Source of the DNA: Sphaerotilus hippei
GTDB taxonomy: Bacteria > Pseudomonadota > Gammaproteobacteria > Burkholderiales > Burkholderiaceae_C
Length of the DNA stretch: 64,000 bases
NCBI RefSeq assembly: GCF_003201595.1
Contig: NZ_QJJS01000001.1
Coordinates: forward strand, 186,001 to 250,000
Reading direction: 5' to 3'
Part shown: positions 27,585 through 51,692 of the stretch, in pieces
How the letters are laid out: the number at the start of each line of letters is the position of its first letter
How positions within the stretch are numbered: position 1 is the first letter of the stretch
Position numbers and translations under genes: made by a program
The notes under the pieces: generated by a model
Databases searched by the model: none
The model's input: only the letters and a program-made list of their open reading frames with translations
Told to the model about the DNA's origin: nothing

Positions 27585-28793
27585 ATGTCCTCCAGCTCCT
27601 CGGGCAAGCGCCGCTTCGCCCGCATCGACCGCCTGCCCCCCTACGTCTTCAACATCACGGCCGAGCTCAAGCTCGCCGCGCGCCGCCGTGGCGAGGACAT
27701 CATCGACCTCAGCATGGGCAACCCCGACGGCGCCACGCCCGCGCACATCGTCGCCAAGCTCACCGAGGTCGCGCAAAGGCCCGACACCCACGGCTACTCG
27801 GCCAGCAAGGGCATCCCGCGCCTGCGCCGGGCCATCAGCCACTGGTACCAGGACCGTTACGAGGTCGACATCGACCCCGACAGCGAAGCCATCGTCACGA
27901 TCGGCTCCAAGGAAGGCCTGGCCCACCTGATGCTGGCCACGCTGGACCGGGGCGACACCGTGCTGGTGCCCGATCCGAGCTACCCGATCCACATCTACGG
28001 CGCGGTGATCGCCGGGGCCGACATCCGCAGCGTGCCGCTGGTGCCGGGCGTGGACTTCTTCGCCGAGCTCGAGAAGACCATCCGCGGCAGCTACCCCAAG
28101 CCCAAGATGATGATCCTGGGCTTTCCGAGCAACCCGACCGCGCAGTGCGTCGAGCTCGACTTCTTCGAGCGCGTGATCGCGCTGGCGAAGAAGCACGACA
28201 TCTTCGTCGTGCACGACCTGGCCTACGCCGACATCGTCTTCGACGGCTGGAAGGCGCCCAGCATCATGCAGGTCAAGGGGGCCAAGGACATCGCGGTCGA
28301 GTTCTTCACGCTCAGCAAGAGCTACAACATGGCCGGCTGGCGCATCGGCTTCATGGTCGGCAACCCCGATCTGGTCGCGGCGCTGGCTCGCATCAAGAGC
28401 TACCACGACTACGGCACCTTCACGCCGCTGCAGGTGGCGGCCATCGCCGCGCTGGAAGGCGACCAGCAGTGCGTGAAGGACATCGCCGCGACCTACCAGA
28501 AGCGCCGCGACGTGCTCCACAAGGGCCTGACCGAAGCCGGCTGGCCGGTGGAGAAGCCCAAGGCGTCGATGTACATCTGGGCGAAGATCCCCGAGCACTA
28601 CGCCCACCTGGGCTCGCTGGAGTTCGCCAAGCAGCTGATGGAGCGGGCCAAGGTCTGCGTGTCACCGGGCATCGGCTTCGGCGACCACGGCGACGACCAC
28701 GTGCGCTTCGCCCTGATCGAGAACGAGGGCCGCATCCGCCAGGCGGTGCGTGGCATCAAGGCGATGCTCAAGGCTGACGGGCTGACGGGCTGA
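27585..28793 (+). CDS. alaC: Alanine aminotransferase, AlaC type
   Basis: A 402-residue class I/II aminotransferase dependent on pyridoxal phosphate. The Schiff-base lysine is K245 in [14 protein letters not shown]211 and Y214 in [11 protein letters not shown] are cofactor contacts; N183 sits in FPSNPTA. The whole chain resembles E. coli AlaC, which makes alanine from pyruvate and glutamate. It diverges from the ethylene-receptor-like kinase gene across a 193-bp gap. The last seven codons and the stop lie inside an eight-base tandem repeat (see 28773-28844), so the C-terminal KADGLTG is repeat-encoded. Confidence 0.92.
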
Positions 28794-28844
28794 CGGGCTG
28801 ACGGGCTGACGGGCTGACGGGCTGACGGGCTGACGGGCTGACGG
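28773..28844. repeat. Nine-copy octanucleotide tandem repeat GCTGACGG
   Basis: Nine perfect head-to-tail copies of GCTGACGG. The first three copies encode the end of alaC, including its TGA stop at 28791-28793; the other six lie in the gap before the GGDEF-EAL gene. Because an eight-base unit steps through all three frames every 24 bases, the stop is met in the third unit whatever the total number of copies above three. Copy-number change should therefore leave AlaC intact. No other array of this unit is seen in the window. Confidence 0.97.
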
Positions 28845-28971
28845 GCCGGCCACGCGCCCGGCGCCGTCGTGCAAAGGTACCGGCTGACGCCGCCTGAATG
28901 AAGGGGCGTAACAGTCGGTACGGGCCCCCGTCCCGAGATCCTGAAGTGCAAAATACCAACCGGTTCCGGTC

Positions 28972-31461: not shown

Positions 31462-33462
31462 TCAGGGGCCGGCGGGCAGCAGGTCGCGGGTGTCCACCCA
31501 CCAGACCTCGCCGGTGCGCTGCTGCGCCTCGGCCATCAGGTGCTGCGTGCCCCCGGGGCCGTCGCCGCCGGCGCCGTTCCACAGGCAGATGAAACGCAGC
31601 TTGTCGGGGCCGTGGGCCAGGGCGGTGTTGAGCAGCCAGCGGTTGCCGCGCTCGAAGGGGTCGGTGCCCCGTGGTGGCGGGCCGAGGTCGGCCGGCATCA
31701 TGCGCAGCGGGGTGCCGAGCCGCGGCTTGAGCGCCGCCCAGCGCTGGCGCCAGCGGGCGCCGTCGATGCTGGGCAGGATCGAGCGCTGCACGAACTCCGG
31801 CTCCTCCAGCGGCAGCATCACCTGGCAGCGCACGCCGCGGGCGACGCAGGCCTCGAGGAAGAGCAGGTCGCCCCCCGCGGCGGCCTGGCACAGCGCGAGG
31901 TCGGCCGGACCGGCGTCGTGGTGGGCCAGCGCGGCGTTCAGCCGGTCGGCGGCGGCGCCCTCCATCGCGGGCGGAAAACGCGGTTTCTCGCGGCCGGGCT
32001 GGTCCATCATGTGGCCGGAGAACAGCAGCACCTGGCGTGGCACGAAGGGCGGCTCGCTGCGCCGGATCTCGCGCTCGACGATGTCGAGCGCCAGGGTGGT
32101 CTCCGCCGGACGGAAGCCGAGGTCACGCAGCAGCAGCAGCGTCTGGCGCGAGGAGTCCAGCGCGAACCAGTCCTTGTCGGCGGCGGCGATGGCCGCTCTC
32201 CAGTCGCGGCCGACCGTGGCCGCATCGGCGCACAGCAGGCTCAGCTCGGCCCGCGAGGCACGGGCCCAGTAGTCCCTGGGCGAGCGCTCCAGCGTGCTGT
32301 CGATGGCCCAGCGCACGCCGCCCCGCAGCGCCTCGGTGTCCTCGGGGCGCACCGGGCCGCCCAGGTGCGCACGCATCACGGTCAGCGTCAGCGCGTTGAT
32401 GCCGGAGTAGCAATGGCCCGGATCGGCCGCGAACGCGGTGCGGTAGGGCACGATGGCCTCCTCCAGCAGCGCATCCTCGCCGGTGGCCGCGGCCAGCAGC
32501 GCGGCGGGCTCGACCACGGTGCCGGCCCCGCCGCGGGGCCGCCAGCGCTCGACCCAGCTGTCCTTCTCGACCCGCCCGGCCAGCGCCCAGTTCTCCGCGT
32601 CACTGGCCGCGTCGCCGATCAGCGCATGGACCCAGCCGCGGGCCTCGTCGAACCGGTGCAGCCGCCCCAGGCAGATGGCCTTCTTCTGCCGGCTGGGGAT
32701 GTCGCCGGGGTCGATGGCCAGCGCGGCCTCGAACTGCTCGAGCGCCAGCGCCGGCTGCTGCAGCTTCAGCAGGCTGGTGCCGGCGGTGATGCGGGCCTCC
32801 AGCGCCAGCGCCCGGGTCGGGGTCTCGTCGGCCAGCGTCAGGATGTCGCCCGGCTGGTTGCAGCGCCGTGCCAGCTCCAGGCGCTGGGCCCACTCCTTGT
32901 AGGCGTCGCTGAACTCGTTCGTGCCGCTGAGCAGCAGCTTCTTCCACTGCGGCTGCTGCAGATGGGGCAGCAGCGAGTAGACCGGGCTGACGAGCCGGCG
33001 GGTCGAGCTTTCCAGCGTCTCGCGGGCCATGGCGGTGAGCTGCTCGATGCAGGCGCCCCGGCGGGCCGGGTCGGGCACGCCATCGGGGGTCAGCGCATAA
33101 CGCAGCTTGCGATCGGTGTAGACGTCGAAGGCCTGGGCCGACGTGCTGCCGTTGACGGTGCCGTACACCAGCACGACCCCGCGCATGCGCAGCGCGTGGC
33201 GCACGCCCAGCTCGTACCAGACGTTCGGGTTGGCGATCGTCAGGTCGGCCACCACCAGATCGGCGATCAGCAGCTCCTGGAACATGTCGGTGCGGATGTC
33301 GCCGGCCCGCAGTTCCTCGTCGGCCCGGAAGACCTCGAAGCCGGCGCGGGCCAGCGCCGGCGCCAGCAGCTCCTTGTGCACCCGGTCGAAGTTGATCAGG
33401 CCCTGGCCATCCGGTCCGGGCTTGAGGCCGAAAGGCATCGCGATGAAGGCGTGGGGCTTCAT
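31462..33462 (-). CDS. TIR-like N-terminal domain plus TPR protein (DUF4071-like)
   Basis: A 666-residue soluble protein. Residues about 1-105 form a TIR/nucleoside-deoxyribosyltransferase-like fold: HAFIAMPFG at the start, LADLVVADLTIANPN and the conserved VWYELGVRHAL with candidate catalytic E84. Residues about 110-430 contain TPR-like helices (ALALEQFEAALAIDPGD) resembling the bacterial form of the MAP3K TRAFs-binding domain. The C-terminal part (about 440-660) is alpha/beta (QVLLFSGHMMDQPG, LCQAAAGGDLLFLEACVARG, ending LLPAGP) and may be a second Rossmann-like module. It is 83 bp downstream of the TIR-membrane gene on the same strand. Function unknown; a role in stress or phage response is only a guess. 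Confidence 0.75.
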   Translation of the reverse strand: MKPHAFIAMPFGLKPGPDGQGLINFDRVHKELLAPALARAGFEVFRADEELRAGDIRTDMFQELLIADLVVADLTIANPNVWYELGVRHALRMRGVVLVYGTVNGSTSAQAFDVYTDRKLRYALTPDGVPDPARRGACIEQLTAMARETLESSTRRLVSPVYSLLPHLQQPQWKKLLLSGTNEFSDAYKEWAQRLELARRCNQPGDILTLADETPTRALALEARITAGTSLLKLQQPALALEQFEAALAIDPGDIPSRQKKAICLGRLHRFDEARGWVHALIGDAASDAENWALAGRVEKDSWVERWRPRGGAGTVVEPAALLAAATGEDALLEEAIVPYRTAFAADPGHCYSGINALTLTVMRAHLGGPVRPEDTEALRGGVRWAIDSTLERSPRDYWARASRAELSLLCADAATVGRDWRAAIAAADKDWFALDSSRQTLLLLRDLGFRPAETTLALDIVEREIRRSEPPFVPRQVLLFSGHMMDQPGREKPRFPPAMEGAAADRLNAALAHHDAGPADLALCQAAAGGDLLFLEACVARGVRCQVMLPLEEPEFVQRSILPSIDGARWRQRWAALKPRLGTPLRMMPADLGPPPRGTDPFERGNRWLLNTALAHGPDKLRFICLWNGAGGDGPGGTQHLMAEAQQRTGEVWWVDTRDLLPAGP

Positions 33463-33545
33463 GGTCGGGTCCGCGGGGTCGTGCTGCGTGGTTCGTCCCG
33501 TCTGCGCAGGCAGCGGCGGGCGTCGGTCGAGGGCCGCGGCCGGCT

Positions 33546-35324
33546 TCAGGGGTCGTTGCCACAGCCGGCCACCGTGCGTCCGCCGGGGGCGCAGAGGGCG
33601 GCATCGAACCAGATCTCGTAGGTGTCGTTGTCCGGGCGGGCGTTGCGCAGCAGGGCCAGGCCGGCCGGCAGGCCGGCCACCTCGCCGAGGACACGCTGGT
33701 TCCAGCGCGCCAGGTCCGGATCGCTCGCGCCCTGGCTGCGCACCTCGGGGCGGGCGGGTGCACGGGCGGCGCCGGTGTTCTCGATCGCCGGGGTCCGGTA
33801 GCCGGCCCGGGCCAGGCGGCTCAGCAGCGCTTCGGCCACCGGTCGCTGGCGCTCGTGGGCGATCTGCACATAGGCCACCGGCCGCTCCCGCTGGCTGCGC
33901 TGCAGCGCACGCTCCAGGGCCTGCGACACCTCGCGCACCGCCGGGTCGTCCACCGGGGCCATGCCCTGCAGCAGCTGGCGCAGCGCGGGCTCCTGGCCGC
34001 GCAGGGTCGACGGGCTGGCGCGTCGCAGCAGGGCCGCCGCGGTGACCAGGCCTTCGCGCGTGGCGGCGTCGACCGGGGTCTGCTGCAGGGCCGACCGGGC
34101 CCGGGCGATCGCCGTGGGCAGGGCCTCCGCGGCCAGCGTGGCATCCAGCGTCAGCGCCGCACCGGCGGCCAGGCGGGCCTCGCGGTCGCGGCTGAAGAGG
34201 GCTTCGGCCCGCTGGCGGGCCTGTTCGGCGGCCGCGGCCGGGGCGGCGATGCGGGGCAGCTGCACGGCTGCAGCGGCGGCGGCGGTGATGCGCGGCGCGT
34301 CCGGCGGGGCCGATGCCGGCGTCCAGCCCGGTCGGGCGGCCGCCACCGGGGGCGGGGCGGCCGGTGGCTCGCTGGCCGGGAGGTCGGCCGGTGCGGTGCT
34401 GCGGGACAGCGCCGGGGCGGCATCCTGCAGCCGCAGCGCGCCCAGCTGCTGGCTGGCGACCAGGCGCTGGCTGGTGTCGAGCCGGGTCGGTTCGGCCCGG
34501 GCCAGCTCGAGCGCGGCGGCGAAGTGCTGCAGCGCGTCGCTGCGCAGGGCCTCGAGCACCTCGCCGGCCGGGGGGGGCGAGCCGCGCAGCATCAGCTGCA
34601 CGTAGAGGTGGGCGAGGAAATAGTGGCCACGGGCCAGCGCCGGGTCGAGCGCCAGCGCGTCGGTGTAGGCCGACTGCGCGCCCTCGAGCTGCGGCGGCTG
34701 GGCGAAGTGCAGCTGCAGGGCCCGTTCGAGCCGCTCGCGGGCTTCCCGCCGTCCCTGTTCGTGCTGGCTGCGCTGCCAGCCCAGCCAGCCGGCGCTGCCG
34801 GCCAGACCGGCCACGCCGGCCGCGCCCAGGGTCGTCAGCAGACGGCGCCGGCGCCGGCGGGTGAGCGAGGCCTCGGGTCCGGCTCCACCGGGGCCGTGCG
34901 AGGTGTCGGCGCCGCTGCCGGGGCGCCGGGCCACTTCCAGCCGCTGCCGGATCTGCTCGATCAGGCGGGCGCAGGCCTCGTCGTCCGCATCCCCGTCCCA
35001 GTCCAGCAGGTCGAGCGTGTGCAGCGTGCCGAAGCCCAGCGGCAGCTGCACGTCCTCGATGCGCACCGGCAGCAGCTTGCCCTGTTCCCGCGCGCGGGTC
35101 GACTCGTCACGCACGAAGCCCGACAGCACCGAGGCGGTCGACCACAGCACCAGCACCACCGGGGCGATGCGCAGCTGGTACTCGATCTTGGTGGCGAAGT
35201 CCTCGCCGCCGGCGAGTTCGCGGTCCCACCACACGGACAGTCCGTGGGACTCCAGGGCATCGGCCAGCGCGTGCGCGGTGTCGCGGTCCTCGCGGGCGTA
35301 GCTGATGAAGATCTCGGTGTTCAT
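33546..35324 (-). CDS. Membrane-anchored TIR-domain protein with helical C-terminal region
   Basis: A 592-residue protein. Residues 1-130 are a TIR domain: EIFISYAREDRD at the start, SVWWDRELAGGEDF as the BB-loop region, and VLSGFVRDE with E74 at the place of the NAD-cleaving glutamate. A run of arginines (156-161) precedes one membrane helix (161-183), so the TIR part should be cytoplasmic and the rest outside. The C-terminal region has TPR-like helices (about 190-290), an Ala/Pro-rich stretch (about 300-360) and an end domain resembling LytR_C/SPOR-type folds (about 485-592). GGGGAG precedes the ATG. It lies between the metallophosphoesterase and TIR-like/TPR genes. Confidence 0.78.
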   Translation of the reverse strand: MNTEIFISYAREDRDTAHALADALESHGLSVWWDRELAGGEDFATKIEYQLRIAPVVLVLWSTASVLSGFVRDESTRAREQGKLLPVRIEDVQLPLGFGTLHTLDLLDWDGDADDEACARLIEQIRQRLEVARRPGSGADTSHGPGGAGPEASLTRRRRRRLLTTLGAAGVAGLAGSAGWLGWQRSQHEQGRREARERLERALQLHFAQPPQLEGAQSAYTDALALDPALARGHYFLAHLYVQLMLRGSPPPAGEVLEALRSDALQHFAAALELARAEPTRLDTSQRLVASQQLGALRLQDAAPALSRSTAPADLPASEPPAAPPPVAAARPGWTPASAPPDAPRITAAAAAAVQLPRIAAPAAAAEQARQRAEALFSRDREARLAAGAALTLDATLAAEALPTAIARARSALQQTPVDAATREGLVTAAALLRRASPSTLRGQEPALRQLLQGMAPVDDPAVREVSQALERALQRSQRERPVAYVQIAHERQRPVAEALLSRLARAGYRTPAIENTGAARAPARPEVRSQGASDPDLARWNQRVLGEVAGLPAGLALLRNARPDNDTYEIWFDAALCAPGGRTVAGCGNDP

Positions 35325-35407
35325 CGCCAGGCTCCCCGGCGACGGCAGGACGGCCGGTCAGCCCCCTTTCGCGCCAGCGTCCAGCATAGTCCCCTGAACC
35401 GGAAATT

Positions 35408-36394
35408 TCATCTGCCTCGAATGCAGGGGGCGCCCGGCACCTCGATCACCTGGGTCGCCTCGAACCGGGCCTGCTCGCCCTTGCCGGCATAACCGAGCGG
35501 ATTGGCCACGACCCGGCAGCGGCCGGTCGAGCCGTCGGGCCGCGGGCCCTCGGCGACGTAGTCGACCGGGCAGTGCAGGTGGCCGTGCAGCCACAGGTCG
35601 GCCAGCGGCAGCAGCTCGTCGAGCGCATTGCAGAAGCCGGCGGTGCCGGGCACCAGGCCGTAGCGGGGATCGGCGCTGCGCAGGCTGGGCGCGAAGTGGG
35701 TGACGACCACCGTCGGTCCGTCCGGATGGGGCGTCGCCAGCGCGGTGCGCAGCCAGGCCTGCGCGCGCAGCCCCAGCTCGCGCAGGTCCTCGGCCAGCAT
35801 CGGCCGGCCGTCGGCCTGCAGCGTGGTGTTCTTGCCGAGGTAGAAGTTGGCGGCGCGGAAGGCCTTGTCCCGCTCGCGCAGCTGGCGCGTCAGCTCGCTG
35901 GTCGGATCGACCGCGGCCGTCTGCGCCGCGCGCAGCTCGCGGCGCACCGTCTTGCGGCTGGGCTGCCCGGACAGCGTGCCGCCCACCAGCCCCTGGGCCT
36001 TGAGCTGCAGGGCCGCCGCGGAGGCCAGGGCATCGAAGTCGGTCCACAGCGTGCTGCCGATGAAGCGCACGCCGTCGATCCGCACCACCTGCTCGTCGAG
36101 CCAGACGATGCCCAGGCGCTCGCAGGCCGAGCGCAGCCGCAGCCGGGTCACGCCGTGCTCGAGCGCGTCGTATTCGTGGTTGCCGGGCACGTAGAGCACC
36201 CGCTTCCAGCCCGCCCCCGGGCGCAGCGGCGAAAAGCGCCCGAGCCCGAAGTCCGCCTCGTTCATCAGCGCCGAGCCCGGCTGGTAGGAGCCGATGTCCC
36301 CGGCCAGCACCAGCAGGTCGACCCCCGGCGCGGGGCGGGCGACGAACCCGGGGCTGGATTCGAGGTGCAGGTCGGAGAGCAGTTGCAGGCGCAT
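35408..36394 (-). CDS. Calcineurin-like metallophosphoesterase
   Basis: A 328-residue enzyme with all five metal-site blocks: SDLHLE near residue 7, AGDIGS near 31, PGNHEY near 70, THFAPS near 230 and HGHLH near 265. It should be an active two-metal phosphoesterase with phosphodiesters or phosphomonoesters as substrates; the exact one is not visible. The start is the ATG at 36394; a GTG six bases earlier is possible. It is the first of three same-strand genes with 83-bp gaps and may act in one pathway with the two TIR-type proteins, for instance on a nucleotide product. That link is inference. Confidence 0.85.
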   Translation of the reverse strand: MRLQLLSDLHLESSPGFVARPAPGVDLLVLAGDIGSYQPGSALMNEADFGLGRFSPLRPGAGWKRVLYVPGNHEYDALEHGVTRLRLRSACERLGIVWLDEQVVRIDGVRFIGSTLWTDFDALASAAALQLKAQGLVGGTLSGQPSRKTVRRELRAAQTAAVDPTSELTRQLRERDKAFRAANFYLGKNTTLQADGRPMLAEDLRELGLRAQAWLRTALATPHPDGPTVVVTHFAPSLRSADPRYGLVPGTAGFCNALDELLPLADLWLHGHLHCPVDYVAEGPRPDGSTGRCRVVANPLGYAGKGEQARFEATQVIEVPGAPCIRGR

Positions 36395-36481
36395 GGTCAC
36401 GGCAGTCTAGTGGTCTGCGGCGCGGTGATAAGCTGAAACGGTCCGCTTGCCGAACCCACCCGATCCGATACGGAGCCCAAG

Positions 36482-37703: not shown

Positions 37704-39383
37704 ATGTCCTCCTGCACCGTGCGCCACTTTCACCAGAGCCTGCTCTGGCCCCTCCAGCTCATGCCGGGCGAGGGGGCCCGGCGCCTGGAGCCGCCCTGGC
37801 AGGTGCTGCTCCAGGCCGGCGGGCCGTGGCGCGAGGTGCACGACGAGTTCACCGGCGACCACCGCGATTTCCACGAGCGCCACTACAACGAGTTCGTCAC
37901 CTTCCTGCCCTTCGTGCAGCGTTTCCTCTATGGCGACGGCACGGCGCGCGGCGCGCGGGGGCGCACCGGCGGCAGCTCGTCGATGCGGGTGCTGCGCCGC
38001 GACGACGTGCGGGCGGTGCGCCTGCAGCTGGCCGAGGGGGAGCCGGCCTTCGAGCTGCAGGTCGAGCAGGTCGACCTCTACTTCTTCCATGACGTCGACG
38101 TCATCCTGCTCCAGGTCGCGGTCCAGGGCCACGACCTGCCGCTGGCCCGCGTGCAGGAGCTGCTCTACCGCTTCGGCCGGGGGTATCCGCCGGGCTGGGA
38201 CGGGCAGGGGCGCGGCCTGCACTGCCCCGCGGCGGTGGCCTGGCTGGACGCGGCCGGCCAGGCGCTGGCGGCATCGGACGCCGGTGACCGCGAGGCTTTC
38301 CTCGGTTTTGTCGGCCGCCACCGCGCGCCGCGCCTGGCGGCCCACTGGCGCTGGCTGCTGCAGCCGCTGATTCCCGATCACGAGGAAGAGGCCGGCGCGC
38401 TGCGCTTCCGGCAGATCGAATACCACCGCATGCCGGTCATGGCCTATCTGGCGCTGGACGAACCCGCCGCGCTGCAGCGCGCCGACTTCGTCCGGCTGGG
38501 CCTCGTGTCGGGCCAGGGGGACGGGGCCGAGGCGGCCGTGTCCACGGCCGATGACGACGACGCCTGGACGGGCGCGGGCGAGCTGCCGTTTGCCGAGCAG
38601 CACCTGGCCGACTTCGAGCAGCGCCACTGCTACGACCGCTTCTGGTGCCGCCGGGGCGCGGCACCGCAGACGCGCTACCTGTGCTGCGGCCATGCGCTGG
38701 TGGTGGTCGGCCGGGCCGATGCGGCCTTCTTCACCGATGCCGAGCGTGGGGTGCTGGCGCAGTTCCGTCACCAGCATTTCCTGCTCTTCCTGATCGCGCA
38801 CTTCCAGAAGGCGGCGCTGCTGATGTTCTCCGACCGCCTGGTCGTGGCGCTGGACGCGCTCAGCATCGCCGACGCCGACTCGGTCAAGCGCTTCAAGCGG
38901 GCGGTGCGGGCGAACTTCGAGAACTTCCTGCGCTTCACCCACCGCTACTGGTTCCACGACATCTCCGAGCAGGTGCAGACGCGGGCGCTGCACCGCCTGT
39001 GCGTCGAGCACCTCGGCCTGGAGACGCTCTACCGCGAGGTGCGCGAGCGGGTCGGCGAGATGAACACCTACCTCGACACCGACAGCCTGCGCCGCCAGGC
39101 CAACACCGTCGTGCGGCTGACGGTGGTGACCATCGCCGGGCTGATCGGCACGCTGTCCACCGGCTTCCTCGGCATGAACCTGCTGGCCGAGGCCGAGGCG
39201 CCCTGGAGCCGGCGTGCCGCCATCTTCGGCTTCACGCTGCTGGCGGCCTTGCTGGTGACGGGCTACACCATCGTCAAGTCCAAGCGCCTGTCGGACTTTC
39301 TGGACGTGCTGTCCGACGAGCGCCTGAGCCTGGCGGAGAAGTTCGGCGCCTGGCGCTCGGTGTGGCGCCACGAGGGCGGCTGA
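37704..39383 (+). CDS. CorA-like membrane protein with large N-terminal domain
   Basis: A 559-residue protein whose last 90 residues carry the CorA hallmark: a long helix, TM1 ending in FLGMN (GMN at 490-492), a short acidic loop (LLAEAEAPW) and TM2 (FGFTLLAALLVTGYTIV), then a cytoplasmic tail. CorA channels move Mg2+ or other divalent ions. The N-terminal part, about 450 residues, is longer than the normal CorA funnel and I do not recognise its beta-rich opening (ARRLEPPWQVLLQAG...) or the Cys-containing CYDRFWCRR and YLCCGHAL segments. Cation transport is therefore a family-based guess. It follows the aminotransferase gene by 94 bp. Confidence 0.75.
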   Translation: MSSCTVRHFHQSLLWPLQLMPGEGARRLEPPWQVLLQAGGPWREVHDEFTGDHRDFHERHYNEFVTFLPFVQRFLYGDGTARGARGRTGGSSSMRVLRRDDVRAVRLQLAEGEPAFELQVEQVDLYFFHDVDVILLQVAVQGHDLPLARVQELLYRFGRGYPPGWDGQGRGLHCPAAVAWLDAAGQALAASDAGDREAFLGFVGRHRAPRLAAHWRWLLQPLIPDHEEEAGALRFRQIEYHRMPVMAYLALDEPAALQRADFVRLGLVSGQGDGAEAAVSTADDDDAWTGAGELPFAEQHLADFEQRHCYDRFWCRRGAAPQTRYLCCGHALVVVGRADAAFFTDAERGVLAQFRHQHFLLFLIAHFQKAALLMFSDRLVVALDALSIADADSVKRFKRAVRANFENFLRFTHRYWFHDISEQVQTRALHRLCVEHLGLETLYREVRERVGEMNTYLDTDSLRRQANTVVRLTVVTIAGLIGTLSTGFLGMNLLAEAEAPWSRRAAIFGFTLLAALLVTGYTIVKSKRLSDFLDVLSDERLSLAEKFGAWRSVWRHEGG

Positions 39384-51347: not shown

Positions 51348-51692
51348 TCAGCGGGTGTCGGCGGGCCGCAGCGGCGCACGCGCCTGGGCGATGGCCTGCA
51401 GCGCCGCATGTTCGCTGCGCAGCGAGTCCTCGAGCGGCGAGCGGCACAGCCCGGCATGGGCGTAGTGCAGGTTCTCGTAGAGCTCGGCCGTGGCCGGGTG
51501 GGTGTCGAGCACCACCTGCAGCACGGGGCCGGGTTCGGCGGTTTCCAGGGCCTTGCCCAGGCGCTGCATCAGCAGCCGGTACTGGTCGATGCCGGCGCCG
51601 GTCGGGTCACGATCCAGGCGCTCGAACAACTGGGCGAGCGAGATCAGGTTCTGCATCCTGGCACTGGGGCGCAGGGTCTTGGCGGTCGACAT
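51348..51692 (-). CDS. Small conserved protein of unknown function
   Basis: A 114-residue, mostly helical soluble protein without a recognised motif. The N-terminal half (ARMQNLISLAQLFERLDRDPTGAGIDQYRLLMQRLGKALE) is predicted helical, with aromatic and acidic residues later (TAELYENLHYAHAGLC). GGAG lies about eight bases before the ATG at 51692 and codon use matches neighbouring genes, so it is likely real. It lies between the helicase gene and the divergent trhO gene. Confidence 0.65.
   Translation of the reverse strand: MSTAKTLRPSARMQNLISLAQLFERLDRDPTGAGIDQYRLLMQRLGKALETAEPGPVLQVVLDTHPATAELYENLHYAHAGLCRSPLEDSLRSEHAALQAIAQARAPLRPADTR

What the first reader, a model, noticed from the sequence alone, without database searches (positions are those of the whole stretch)
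31462..36394. Metallophosphoesterase - TIR-membrane - TIR-like/TPR cassette
Three same-strand genes with equal 83-bp gaps encode an intact phosphoesterase, a membrane TIR protein with the catalytic-type glutamate (E74) and a second protein with a TIR-like start (E84 in VWYELGVRHAL) plus TPR helices. Established: bacterial TIR domains cleave NAD and make nucleotide signals, and phosphoesterases degrade such signals. Inference: a signalling or defence system with built-in signal removal. I do not recognise it as a described one.
Basis: partly seen in the sequence, partly recalled or inferred. Interest (0 to 1): 0.65.

Follow-up and report, generated by a model that had tools for sequence, protein, structure and literature searches.

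The report
TIR gene with modular immune regulator
Two neighbouring bacterial genes look like one version of a widespread but untested immune-type system built on breaking or sensing NAD-like molecules, and its regulator resembles the sensing half of the animal stress kinase ASK1; the third gene that was pointed out looks like an ordinary neighbour.

Summary
The three minus-strand genes and both 83-bp gaps are real, but the trio is not a unit. The phosphoesterase is common: matches in 173 of 200 family genomes, none in 80 loci around relatives of the third gene. What remains is a pair. P1 (31462-33462) has an N-glycosidase domain of the DNPH1/MilB/deoxyribosyltransferase fold (VIA Z 13.6), a TPR-S array best matched, in a near tie, by ASK1 (Z 18.2), and a SLOG-like domain (YpsA, Z 15.2). 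Its glutamate E84 is kept in 18 of 18 independently found relatives' alignments. P2 (33546-35324) is a TIR protein; its glutamate is kept in 22 of 22 TIRs aligned. P1 relatives sit beside interchangeable effector-type genes (patatin, TIR, caspase, CHAT-hydrolase, SLATT): one within 300 bp in 48 of 80 loci. A small TIR gene directly upstream recurs in 3 of 80. Best reading: a two-gene conflict, probably antiphage, module; P1 the constant switch, P2 an exchangeable TIR effector. The class was outlined computationally before. Activity, trigger and phenotype are not shown.

The parts
31462..33462 (-). P1, 666 aa: N-glycosidase-fold (DRHyd/NDT-DNPH1 type) domain, TPR-S array, C-terminal SLOG-like domain; presumed constant switch of the module
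   Evidence: Pfam TPR-S; AlphaFold2 model pLDDT 89.9; structure matches; 80 relatives kept of 322 found
32896..33462 (-). P1 residues 1-189: N-glycosidase-fold domain with F6, D48, D73, E84 invariant in the 58-row alignment
   Evidence: residues 1-180 folded alone, pLDDT 79.9; DNPH1 8rps_B Z 13.6, rmsd 2.7, 126 aligned; invariant columns; E84 in 18 of 18 alignments from a scan that did not require it
32050..32904 (-). P1 residues 187-471: TPR-S array
   Evidence: PF20308 2e-17; ASK1 central regulatory region 5ulm_A Z 18.2, rmsd 3.4, 256 aligned, tied with Rap 4gyo_A Z 17.3
31465..32052 (-). P1 residues 471-666: SLOG-like domain (YpsA type), relatives of which also occur without the rest of P1
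   Evidence: 2nx2 YpsA Z 15.2, rmsd 3.6, 161 aligned; weak YAcAr SLOG match in 7 of 39 members scanned, not in P1; domain-only matches
33546..35324 (-). P2, 592 aa: TIR domain (residues 5-122, E74), possible weak transmembrane segment near 163-185 (by eye), Ala-rich middle, conserved C-terminal domain 470-592; presumed effector
   Evidence: TIR_2 1.3e-24; glutamate invariant in 22 of 22 TIRs; C-terminal domain in 5 of 200 genomes

Best explanation
P2 and P1 form a two-gene conflict module, probably antiphage. P1 is the constant part: a sensor and switch that joins a nucleotide N-glycosidase domain to two nucleotide-sensor-type modules (TPR-S, SLOG). P2 is one of several exchangeable effectors, a TIR NADase that P1 switches on. 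When an invader or stress is sensed, P1 changes state: its N-glycosidase domain makes, or its SLOG/TPR-S part binds, a nucleotide or ADP-ribose-type ligand. It then activates the TIR domain of P2, which consumes NAD+ and arrests the cell. Shown here: domains, conserved glutamates, fold relationships and repeated genomic linkage. Inferred: enzyme activities, ligand, order of events, phage as trigger, outcome. The phosphoesterase is not part of it.
For: (1) P1 relatives with the same three-part layout occur in records titled Betaproteobacteria, Pseudomonas and Methylobacter (Gammaproteobacteria), Nitrospira, Cyanobacteria, Chlorobi, Planctomycetota and an archaeal MAG. (2) An effector-type gene lies within 300 bp of P1 in 48 of 80 loci: patatin 18, TIR 15, caspase 9, CHAT-hydrolase 8, SLATT 4, C11 peptidase 1. 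ORF hits thin out with distance: by kb from P1, patatin 18, 4, 2, 1; TIR 19, 10, 2, 2; CHAT-hydrolase 18, 3, 1, 0; caspase 11, 3, 0, 0, then 2 and 5 at 5-7 kb, behind the long CHAT-hydrolase gene. A small control, four phosphoesterase loci plus the window, holds none of these families except P2. (3) Three of 80 loci (L102, L108, L118) have a small TIR gene with a transmembrane segment directly upstream of P1 on the same strand. (4) A P2 relative in genome G162 lies 4 bp downstream of a CHAT-hydrolase-TPR-S protein of the family found in 23 of 80 P1 loci, so P1 and P2 appear to share partners. (5) The TIR glutamate is invariant in 22 of 22 TIRs. P1 E84 is invariant in 58 of 58 rows, but the scan that found most of them used a peptide pattern holding E84; in the 4 rows fetched by the other pattern and in 18 of 18 alignments, found without such a pattern, E84 is also kept. 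(6) P1 has no match in the other two genomes of the genus in the sample, a patchy pattern expected of such modules.
Against: No activity or phenotype is known. Only 3 of 80 loci show the exact P2-P1 order. 32 of 80 loci have none of the effector families tested within 300 bp (some loci end close to P1). The profiles were built from neighbours in the same 80 loci, which are the best 80 of 322. The flanking genes in the window look metabolic; of ten scanned only the CorA-like one met a PADLOC model at 1e-5, so no defence island is seen. P2's membrane anchoring is weak. TIR and patatin occur together within 300 bp in 5 of 15 TIR loci, so TIR is not simply a substitute for patatin and could act upstream.
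Confidence: 0.45

Rival explanations
1. Thoeris-like order: P2's TIR is the signal maker (a cyclic or linear ADP-ribose product), P1's SLOG/TPR-S part binds it, and P1's own N-glycosidase domain (or a patatin partner where present) is the effector.
For: P1 has a SLOG-like domain (Z 15.2 to YpsA). SLOG-bearing ThsA is activated by cADPR isomers, ThsB being the maker of signalling nucleotides (PMC11204291, abstract), and the YpsA-like SLOG clade is said to include cADPR sensors (PMC9503650, passages). TIR and patatin flank P1 together within 300 bp in 5 of 15 TIR loci. P1 has F6 where, by range offsets, DNPH1 and NDT have a tyrosine (inferred), compatible with a ribonucleotide substrate.
Against: Several P1 loci have a patatin partner and no TIR match in the DNA held (e.g. 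L080, L117, L128, L131), so a TIR signal is not generally needed. No SIR2 or macro match in P1.
Confidence: 0.3
2. One reading: the phosphoesterase removes the TIR-made signal.
For: Same strand, 83-bp spacing, metal-binding motifs present by eye.
Against: Family matches in 173 of 200 genomes; 0 of 80 P1 loci hold it; 0 of 23 other phosphoesterase loci show TIR or P1; in a congeneric genome it sits beside a 91% identical aminotransferase instead.
Confidence: 0.04
3. A non-immune stress switch: P1 senses redox, starvation or cell damage, as ASK1 does, and P2 transmits it; phages are not the trigger.
For: Fold match to ASK1 over both the N-terminal and TPR parts (8qgy_B, model 7-471, Z 15.9, rmsd 10.4). 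No defence island seen.
Against: Partner families are of types common in conflict systems; patchy distribution.
Confidence: 0.12
4. P1 and P2 are unrelated neighbours.
For: Only 3 of 80 loci have the same order; P2's C-terminal domain was found in none of the 80 P1 loci.
Against: TIR genes lie within 300 bp of P1 in 15 of 80 loci, with a fall-off with distance; apparent partner sharing through the CHAT-hydrolase family.
Confidence: 0.09

Closest known systems
TPR-S conflict systems (Burroughs and Aravind 2020, recalled; paper not held)
   Same: TPR-S domain (PF20308) above its cut-off; relatives linked to TIR, CHAT, caspase and hydrolase partners; metazoan ASK signalosome components said to derive from bacterial conflict systems (PMC8195603, passage)
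   Different: Whether the N-glycosidase-TPR-S-SLOG layout or the TIR pairing was drawn there could not be checked
Thoeris (ThsA/ThsB)
   Same: A TIR protein beside a protein with a SLOG-like domain
   Different: No SIR2 or macro match; ThcB4 far below its cut-off and ThsB models only weak
ASK1 (MAP3K5) sensor half
   Same: N-terminal Rossmann-type domain plus TPR array in the same order; top structural match of the TPR part, tied with Rap proteins
   Different: No PH or kinase domain found; a SLOG-like domain instead
DNPH1 / MilB / nucleoside 2-deoxyribosyltransferase (DRHyd) fold
   Same: Fold (Z 13.6) and the YELG stretch carrying the glutamate (sequence alignment to DNPH1 not significant, E 1.7)
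   Different: Fused to sensor-type domains; phenylalanine F6 at the inferred place of the tyrosine that in NDTs and DNPH1 goes with 2'-deoxy substrates (PMC11204291, section 11)
CBASS-type and Aga TIR effectors
   Same: TIR part: P2's best PADLOC matches are SAVED_TIR 8.2e-11 and Aga_TIR 2.1e-10
   Different: Matches cover the TIR part only; no CD-NTase or Argonaute match among the proteins scanned
DUF4062 'Swarozyc' TIR-like NADases (preprint PMC13174449; start of abstract in search listing, and passages)
   Same: TIR/NDT-like NADase family reported in antiphage defence; a DUF4062-TPR gene overlaps the start of a P1 relative in L109
   Different: P1 itself has no DUF4062 match at 0.1

Membership tests
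TPR-S conflict systems | TPR-S domain PF20308 | tested here: met
   64.1 bits against cut-off 27.6
TPR-S conflict systems | Linkage to exchangeable effector or signal-enzyme genes | tested here: met
   48 of 80 loci of relatives within 300 bp; that this defines the family is recalled
TPR-S conflict systems | Recognition of an NAD+-derived signal | not testable with these tools
   binding assay needed
Thoeris | TIR protein with catalytic glutamate | tested here: met
   TIR_2 1.3e-24, glutamate invariant in 22 TIRs
Thoeris | ThsA with SIR2-SLOG or TM-macro | tested here: not met
   no SIR2 or macro match in P1; the N-terminal domain folds as an N-glycosidase
Thoeris | Curated Thoeris model score | tested here: not met
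   ThcB4 24.1 bits against cut-off 220; PADLOC ThsB models E 1.4e-3 to 1.8e-2
SLOG superfamily (YpsA-like) | SLOG fold | tested here: met
   2nx2 Z 15.2, 161 aligned, rmsd 3.6; Pfam gives no hit for P1's domain and only weak YAcAr hits in 7 of 39 members scanned, best 0.0049
DRHyd / NDT-DNPH1 superfamily | Fold | tested here: met
   Z 13.6, Foldseek E 4.1e-4; response regulators and TIR domains follow closely
DRHyd / NDT-DNPH1 superfamily | Pfam Nuc_deoxyrib_tr match | tested here: inconclusive
   not in P1; 5 of 39 members at E up to 1, best 0.0059; TIR_2 in 22 of 39, best 0.0034
DRHyd / NDT-DNPH1 superfamily | Glycosidase activity | not testable with these tools
   enzyme assay needed
ASK/MAP3K TRAFs-binding family | PF13281 over cut-off | tested here: not met
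   P1 22.7 bits against 24.1; relative in L158 43 bits, over the cut-off; relative in L105 17 bits, under it
ASK/MAP3K TRAFs-binding family | Kinase domain | tested here: not met
   none matched in P1 at 0.1
CBASS | CD-NTase gene nearby | tested here: not met
   no such PADLOC match in the three proteins or ten flanking proteins; the rest of the window was not scanned

The most novel reading that the evidence does not exclude
P1 is a prokaryotic counterpart of the sensor half of ASK1, working as a general nucleotide-gated switch that carries its own signal enzyme and sensor in one chain and can be plugged into TIR, patatin, caspase/CHAT or SLATT effectors. The window holds its TIR-effector form, an uncharacterised NAD-based immune system.
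Probability: 0.35. Interest if true: 0.75.

Novelty: new variant of a known kind. Interest (0 to 1): 0.5.

Why it matters
If right, one conserved protein seen in 80 fetched loci (of 322 found) across several phyla is an untested immune switch with interchangeable effectors, and it gives a simple bacterial system in which the ASK1-type sensor architecture can be studied without its kinase. It also corrects a plausible but wrong reading: the neighbouring phosphoesterase is not a built-in off-switch.

Tried and rejected
Rejected: the phosphoesterase as a member; a simple insertion of P1-P2 between conserved neighbours (gene order differs in the congeneric genomes, so no empty site could be shown); Thoeris membership; a recent foreign island by composition (GC 0.735-0.760 at 30-36 kb against 0.681-0.754 elsewhere); a plasmid or phage gene (65 plasmid records match but none over 80% of P1, the 15 rows shown covering 49-63%; 19 phage records match, the 10 rows shown covering 18-20%; P2 matches 2 plasmid records over 16%).

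Led nowhere: promoter and terminator scan; sequence-profile searches of the PDB for the two Rossmann domains, nothing significant; single-sequence PDB search of P1, whose top row, a glyoxalase at 0.0048, I take as chance. Foldseek alone listed only what I take to be TPR proteins for whole P1 in the 50 rows shown; the ASK1 and YpsA matches come from the VIA re-alignment.

Dropped or biased: of 80 loci, 12 were not typed for the 58-row alignment and 11 of the 68 typed had one stop codon (place not checked) and were left out; 39 of 58 rows were used for A3 and A4; the tool kept 80 of 322 relatives. The scan patterns contain E84 and F6: 29 of 57 relatives match both patterns, 24 only the E84 one, 4 only the F6 one. 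Independent of the pattern concerned, F6 is F in 24 of 24 and E84 is E in 4 of 4; in alignments, E84 is E in 18 of 18 spanning it and F6 is F in 14 of 15 spanning it, setting aside one short second alignment in L058 (E 0.096) that shows H at F6. profiles were built from neighbours of the same loci. I saw no account of this exact pair in the rows listed by eight library searches, but most lists were capped and the most relevant paper is not held.
Full report
WHAT IS THERE. Three minus-strand ORFs, 31462-33462 (P1, 666 aa), 33546-35324 (P2, 592 aa) and 35408-36400 (phosphoesterase, 330 aa, or 328 aa from the ATG at 36394), are separated by 83 and 83 bp. Pfam finds TPR-S (2e-17) in P1, TIR_2 (1.3e-24) in P2 and Metallophos (1.7e-6) in the third. 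In PADLOC, P1 has only a weak TIR effector match (8.5e-4) and P2 matches several TIR models over its TIR part, best SAVED_TIR 8.2e-11.

THE PHOSPHOESTERASE LOOKS LIKE AN ORDINARY NEIGHBOUR. Its family matched in 173 of 200 genomes drawn from the same family. P1 matched in 29 of 200 at E up to 1e-3, six of them over nearly the full length, this genome included, and P2's C-terminal domain in 5 of 200. Of the three genomes of the genus in the sample, all match the phosphoesterase and one matches P1. No phosphoesterase relative appears in 80 P1 loci (flanks up to 8 kb, some shorter), and neither TIR nor P1 in 23 other phosphoesterase loci (19 of these hold only about 1.5 kb on each side of the match). 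In one congeneric genome it lies next to a 91% identical relative of the aminotransferase at 27585.

WHAT P1 IS. An AlphaFold2 model from 58 aligned sequences has mean pLDDT 89.9. In the VIA re-alignment of Foldseek's matches the TPR part (187-471) is topped by the ASK1 central regulatory region (5ulm_A, Z 18.2, rmsd 3.4, 256 aligned). The cryo-EM ASK1 chain 8qgy_B aligns from residue 7 to 471 (Z 15.9, 396 aligned, rmsd 10.4, so domain orientations differ or the fit is loose). Residues 475-665 match YpsA (2nx2, Z 15.2, rmsd 3.6, 161 aligned), a SLOG protein (so named in PMC7272460, passages). Sequence favours ASK1: Pfam's MAP3K TRAFs-binding model matches P1 just below its cut-off (22.7 against 24.1 bits), one P1 relative well above it (43 bits, L158) and another below it (17 bits, L105), and several plasmid relatives are annotated 'TRAFs-binding domain-containing protein'. 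The N-terminal domain folded alone (residues 1-180, pLDDT 79.9) matches human DNPH1, MilB and nucleoside deoxyribosyltransferases (Foldseek E 4.1e-4; VIA Z 13.6, rmsd 2.7, 126 aligned), with plant TIR domains close behind (Z 12.1). This agrees with the published TIR-DrHyd-SLOG grouping (PMC9503650, passages).

CONSERVED RESIDUES OF P1. E84 is invariant in 58 of 58 rows, but 53 of the 57 relatives match the scan pattern that contains E84, so this is partly circular. Free of that, E84 is kept in the 4 relatives that match only the other pattern and in 18 of 18 alignments from the earlier genome search, down to 30% identity. F6 is kept in the 24 of 24 relatives that do not match the pattern containing it, and in 14 of 15 alignments, one short alignment at E 0.096 set aside. 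By the range offsets, F6 falls where DNPH1 has Y24 and the Chroococcidiopsis enzyme Y7. A tyrosine there goes with 2'-deoxy substrates, and NADase TIRs usually have phenylalanine or alanine (PMC11204291, section 11). So a ribonucleotide or NAD-type substrate is plausible; this step is inference.

WHAT P2 IS. A TIR protein with E74 at the catalytic place. The glutamate column is invariant in an alignment of 22 TIRs: P2, two relatives, and 19 TIR stretches found within 900 bp of P1 relatives. The membrane segment is doubtful in P2 itself (best window 1.23 after residue 130) and in its G162 relative (1.18), but clear in the paralogue at G000:C18 (1.95) and in the three small TIRs directly upstream of P1 elsewhere (1.73-2.22).

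GENE NEIGHBOURHOODS. A pattern scan of one genome for each of 84,980 species gave 322 relatives; the best 80 were kept, and all 80 show the three parts of P1. Neighbours include patatin, TIR, TIR-STAND-WD40, caspase, CHAT-hydrolase-TPR-S, SLATT/DUF4231, C11 peptidase and DUF4062-TPR proteins. Within 300 bp: patatin 18, TIR 15, caspase 9, CHAT-hydrolase 8, SLATT 4, C11 1, phosphoesterase 0; 48 of 80 loci have at least one and 32 none. Hits thin out with distance while the flank available falls only from 150 one-kb pieces to 115, except that caspases reappear at 5-7 kb, behind the long CHAT-hydrolase gene. The control set is small (four loci and the window) and holds only P2. In 3 of 80 loci (two Burkholderiales MAGs and a Rubrivivax MAG) a small TIR gene with a transmembrane segment lies directly upstream of P1 on the same strand, gaps 64, 2 and -3 bp. 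In genome G162 a P2 relative (TIR and C-terminal domain) lies 4 bp downstream of a CHAT-hydrolase-TPR-S protein whose family is found in 23 of 80 P1 loci. P1's SLOG-like domain also occurs alone; in G133 it stands in a cluster with a caspase, a protein with weak Cap17-like and NDT matches, a TIR protein and an AAA+ ATPase with a sub-threshold MoxR match, and a P2 C-terminal relative about 6 kb further on. Not all solitary SLOG-like copies have such company: near others I saw ordinary metabolic or regulatory genes (L064, L065).

MECHANISM. P1 is the constant partner and the others vary, so I read P1 as the switch and P2 as a TIR effector (0.45). The Thoeris-like order, TIR signal to SLOG-bearing P1, is the main rival (0.3). 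In 5 of 15 TIR loci a patatin also lies within 300 bp of P1, which either reading can absorb. What is shown is anatomy, conservation and linkage; activity, ligand, direction and trigger are inferred.

NOVELTY. The class was outlined in print: a TPR scaffold predicted to recognise NAD+-derived signals (Burroughs and Aravind 2020, recalled, not held) and bacterial conflict-system origin of ASK signalosome components (PMC8195603, passage). I saw no account of this pair or of the three-part P1 in the rows listed by eight library searches, which does not exclude one. I file it as a new variant of a known kind.

Noticed in passing
28772-28846: A perfect 8-bp tandem repeat (9.4 copies) at the 3' end of the aminotransferase gene 27585-28793, running past its stop codon; a possible slippage site.
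   Followed up: no
37704-39383: CorA-like protein matching PADLOC's CorA models almost full length (1.2e-54) though below Pfam's cut-off; present in 20 of 100 family genomes (own included), relatives 55-80% identical, so perhaps a standalone gene rather than a CRISPR accessory.
   Followed up: partly
51575-51670: ARAGORN's 96-base tRNA-Arg was not found by Rfam at gathering score and lies opposite a predicted ORF; probably a false call.
   Followed up: partly
L071:8882-14269: Same genome, contig C24: a 1795-aa hydrolase-CHAT-TPR-S protein of the family found beside P1 relatives elsewhere; no P1 match in the 19 kb held.
   Followed up: partly
L159:8933-10627: Same genome, contig C18: a paralogue of P2 with the same TIR and C-terminal domain and a clear transmembrane segment; no P1 match in the 19 kb held.
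   Followed up: partly
L109:5905-8004: A DUF4062-TPR gene overlaps the start of a P1 relative; DUF4062 was recently reported in a preprint as a TIR-like antiphage NADase.
   Followed up: no
L060:7012-15869: G133 cluster with caspase, a weakly Cap17/NDT-like protein, an isolated SLOG-like protein, TIR, an AAA+ ATPase and a P2 C-terminal relative.
   Followed up: partly
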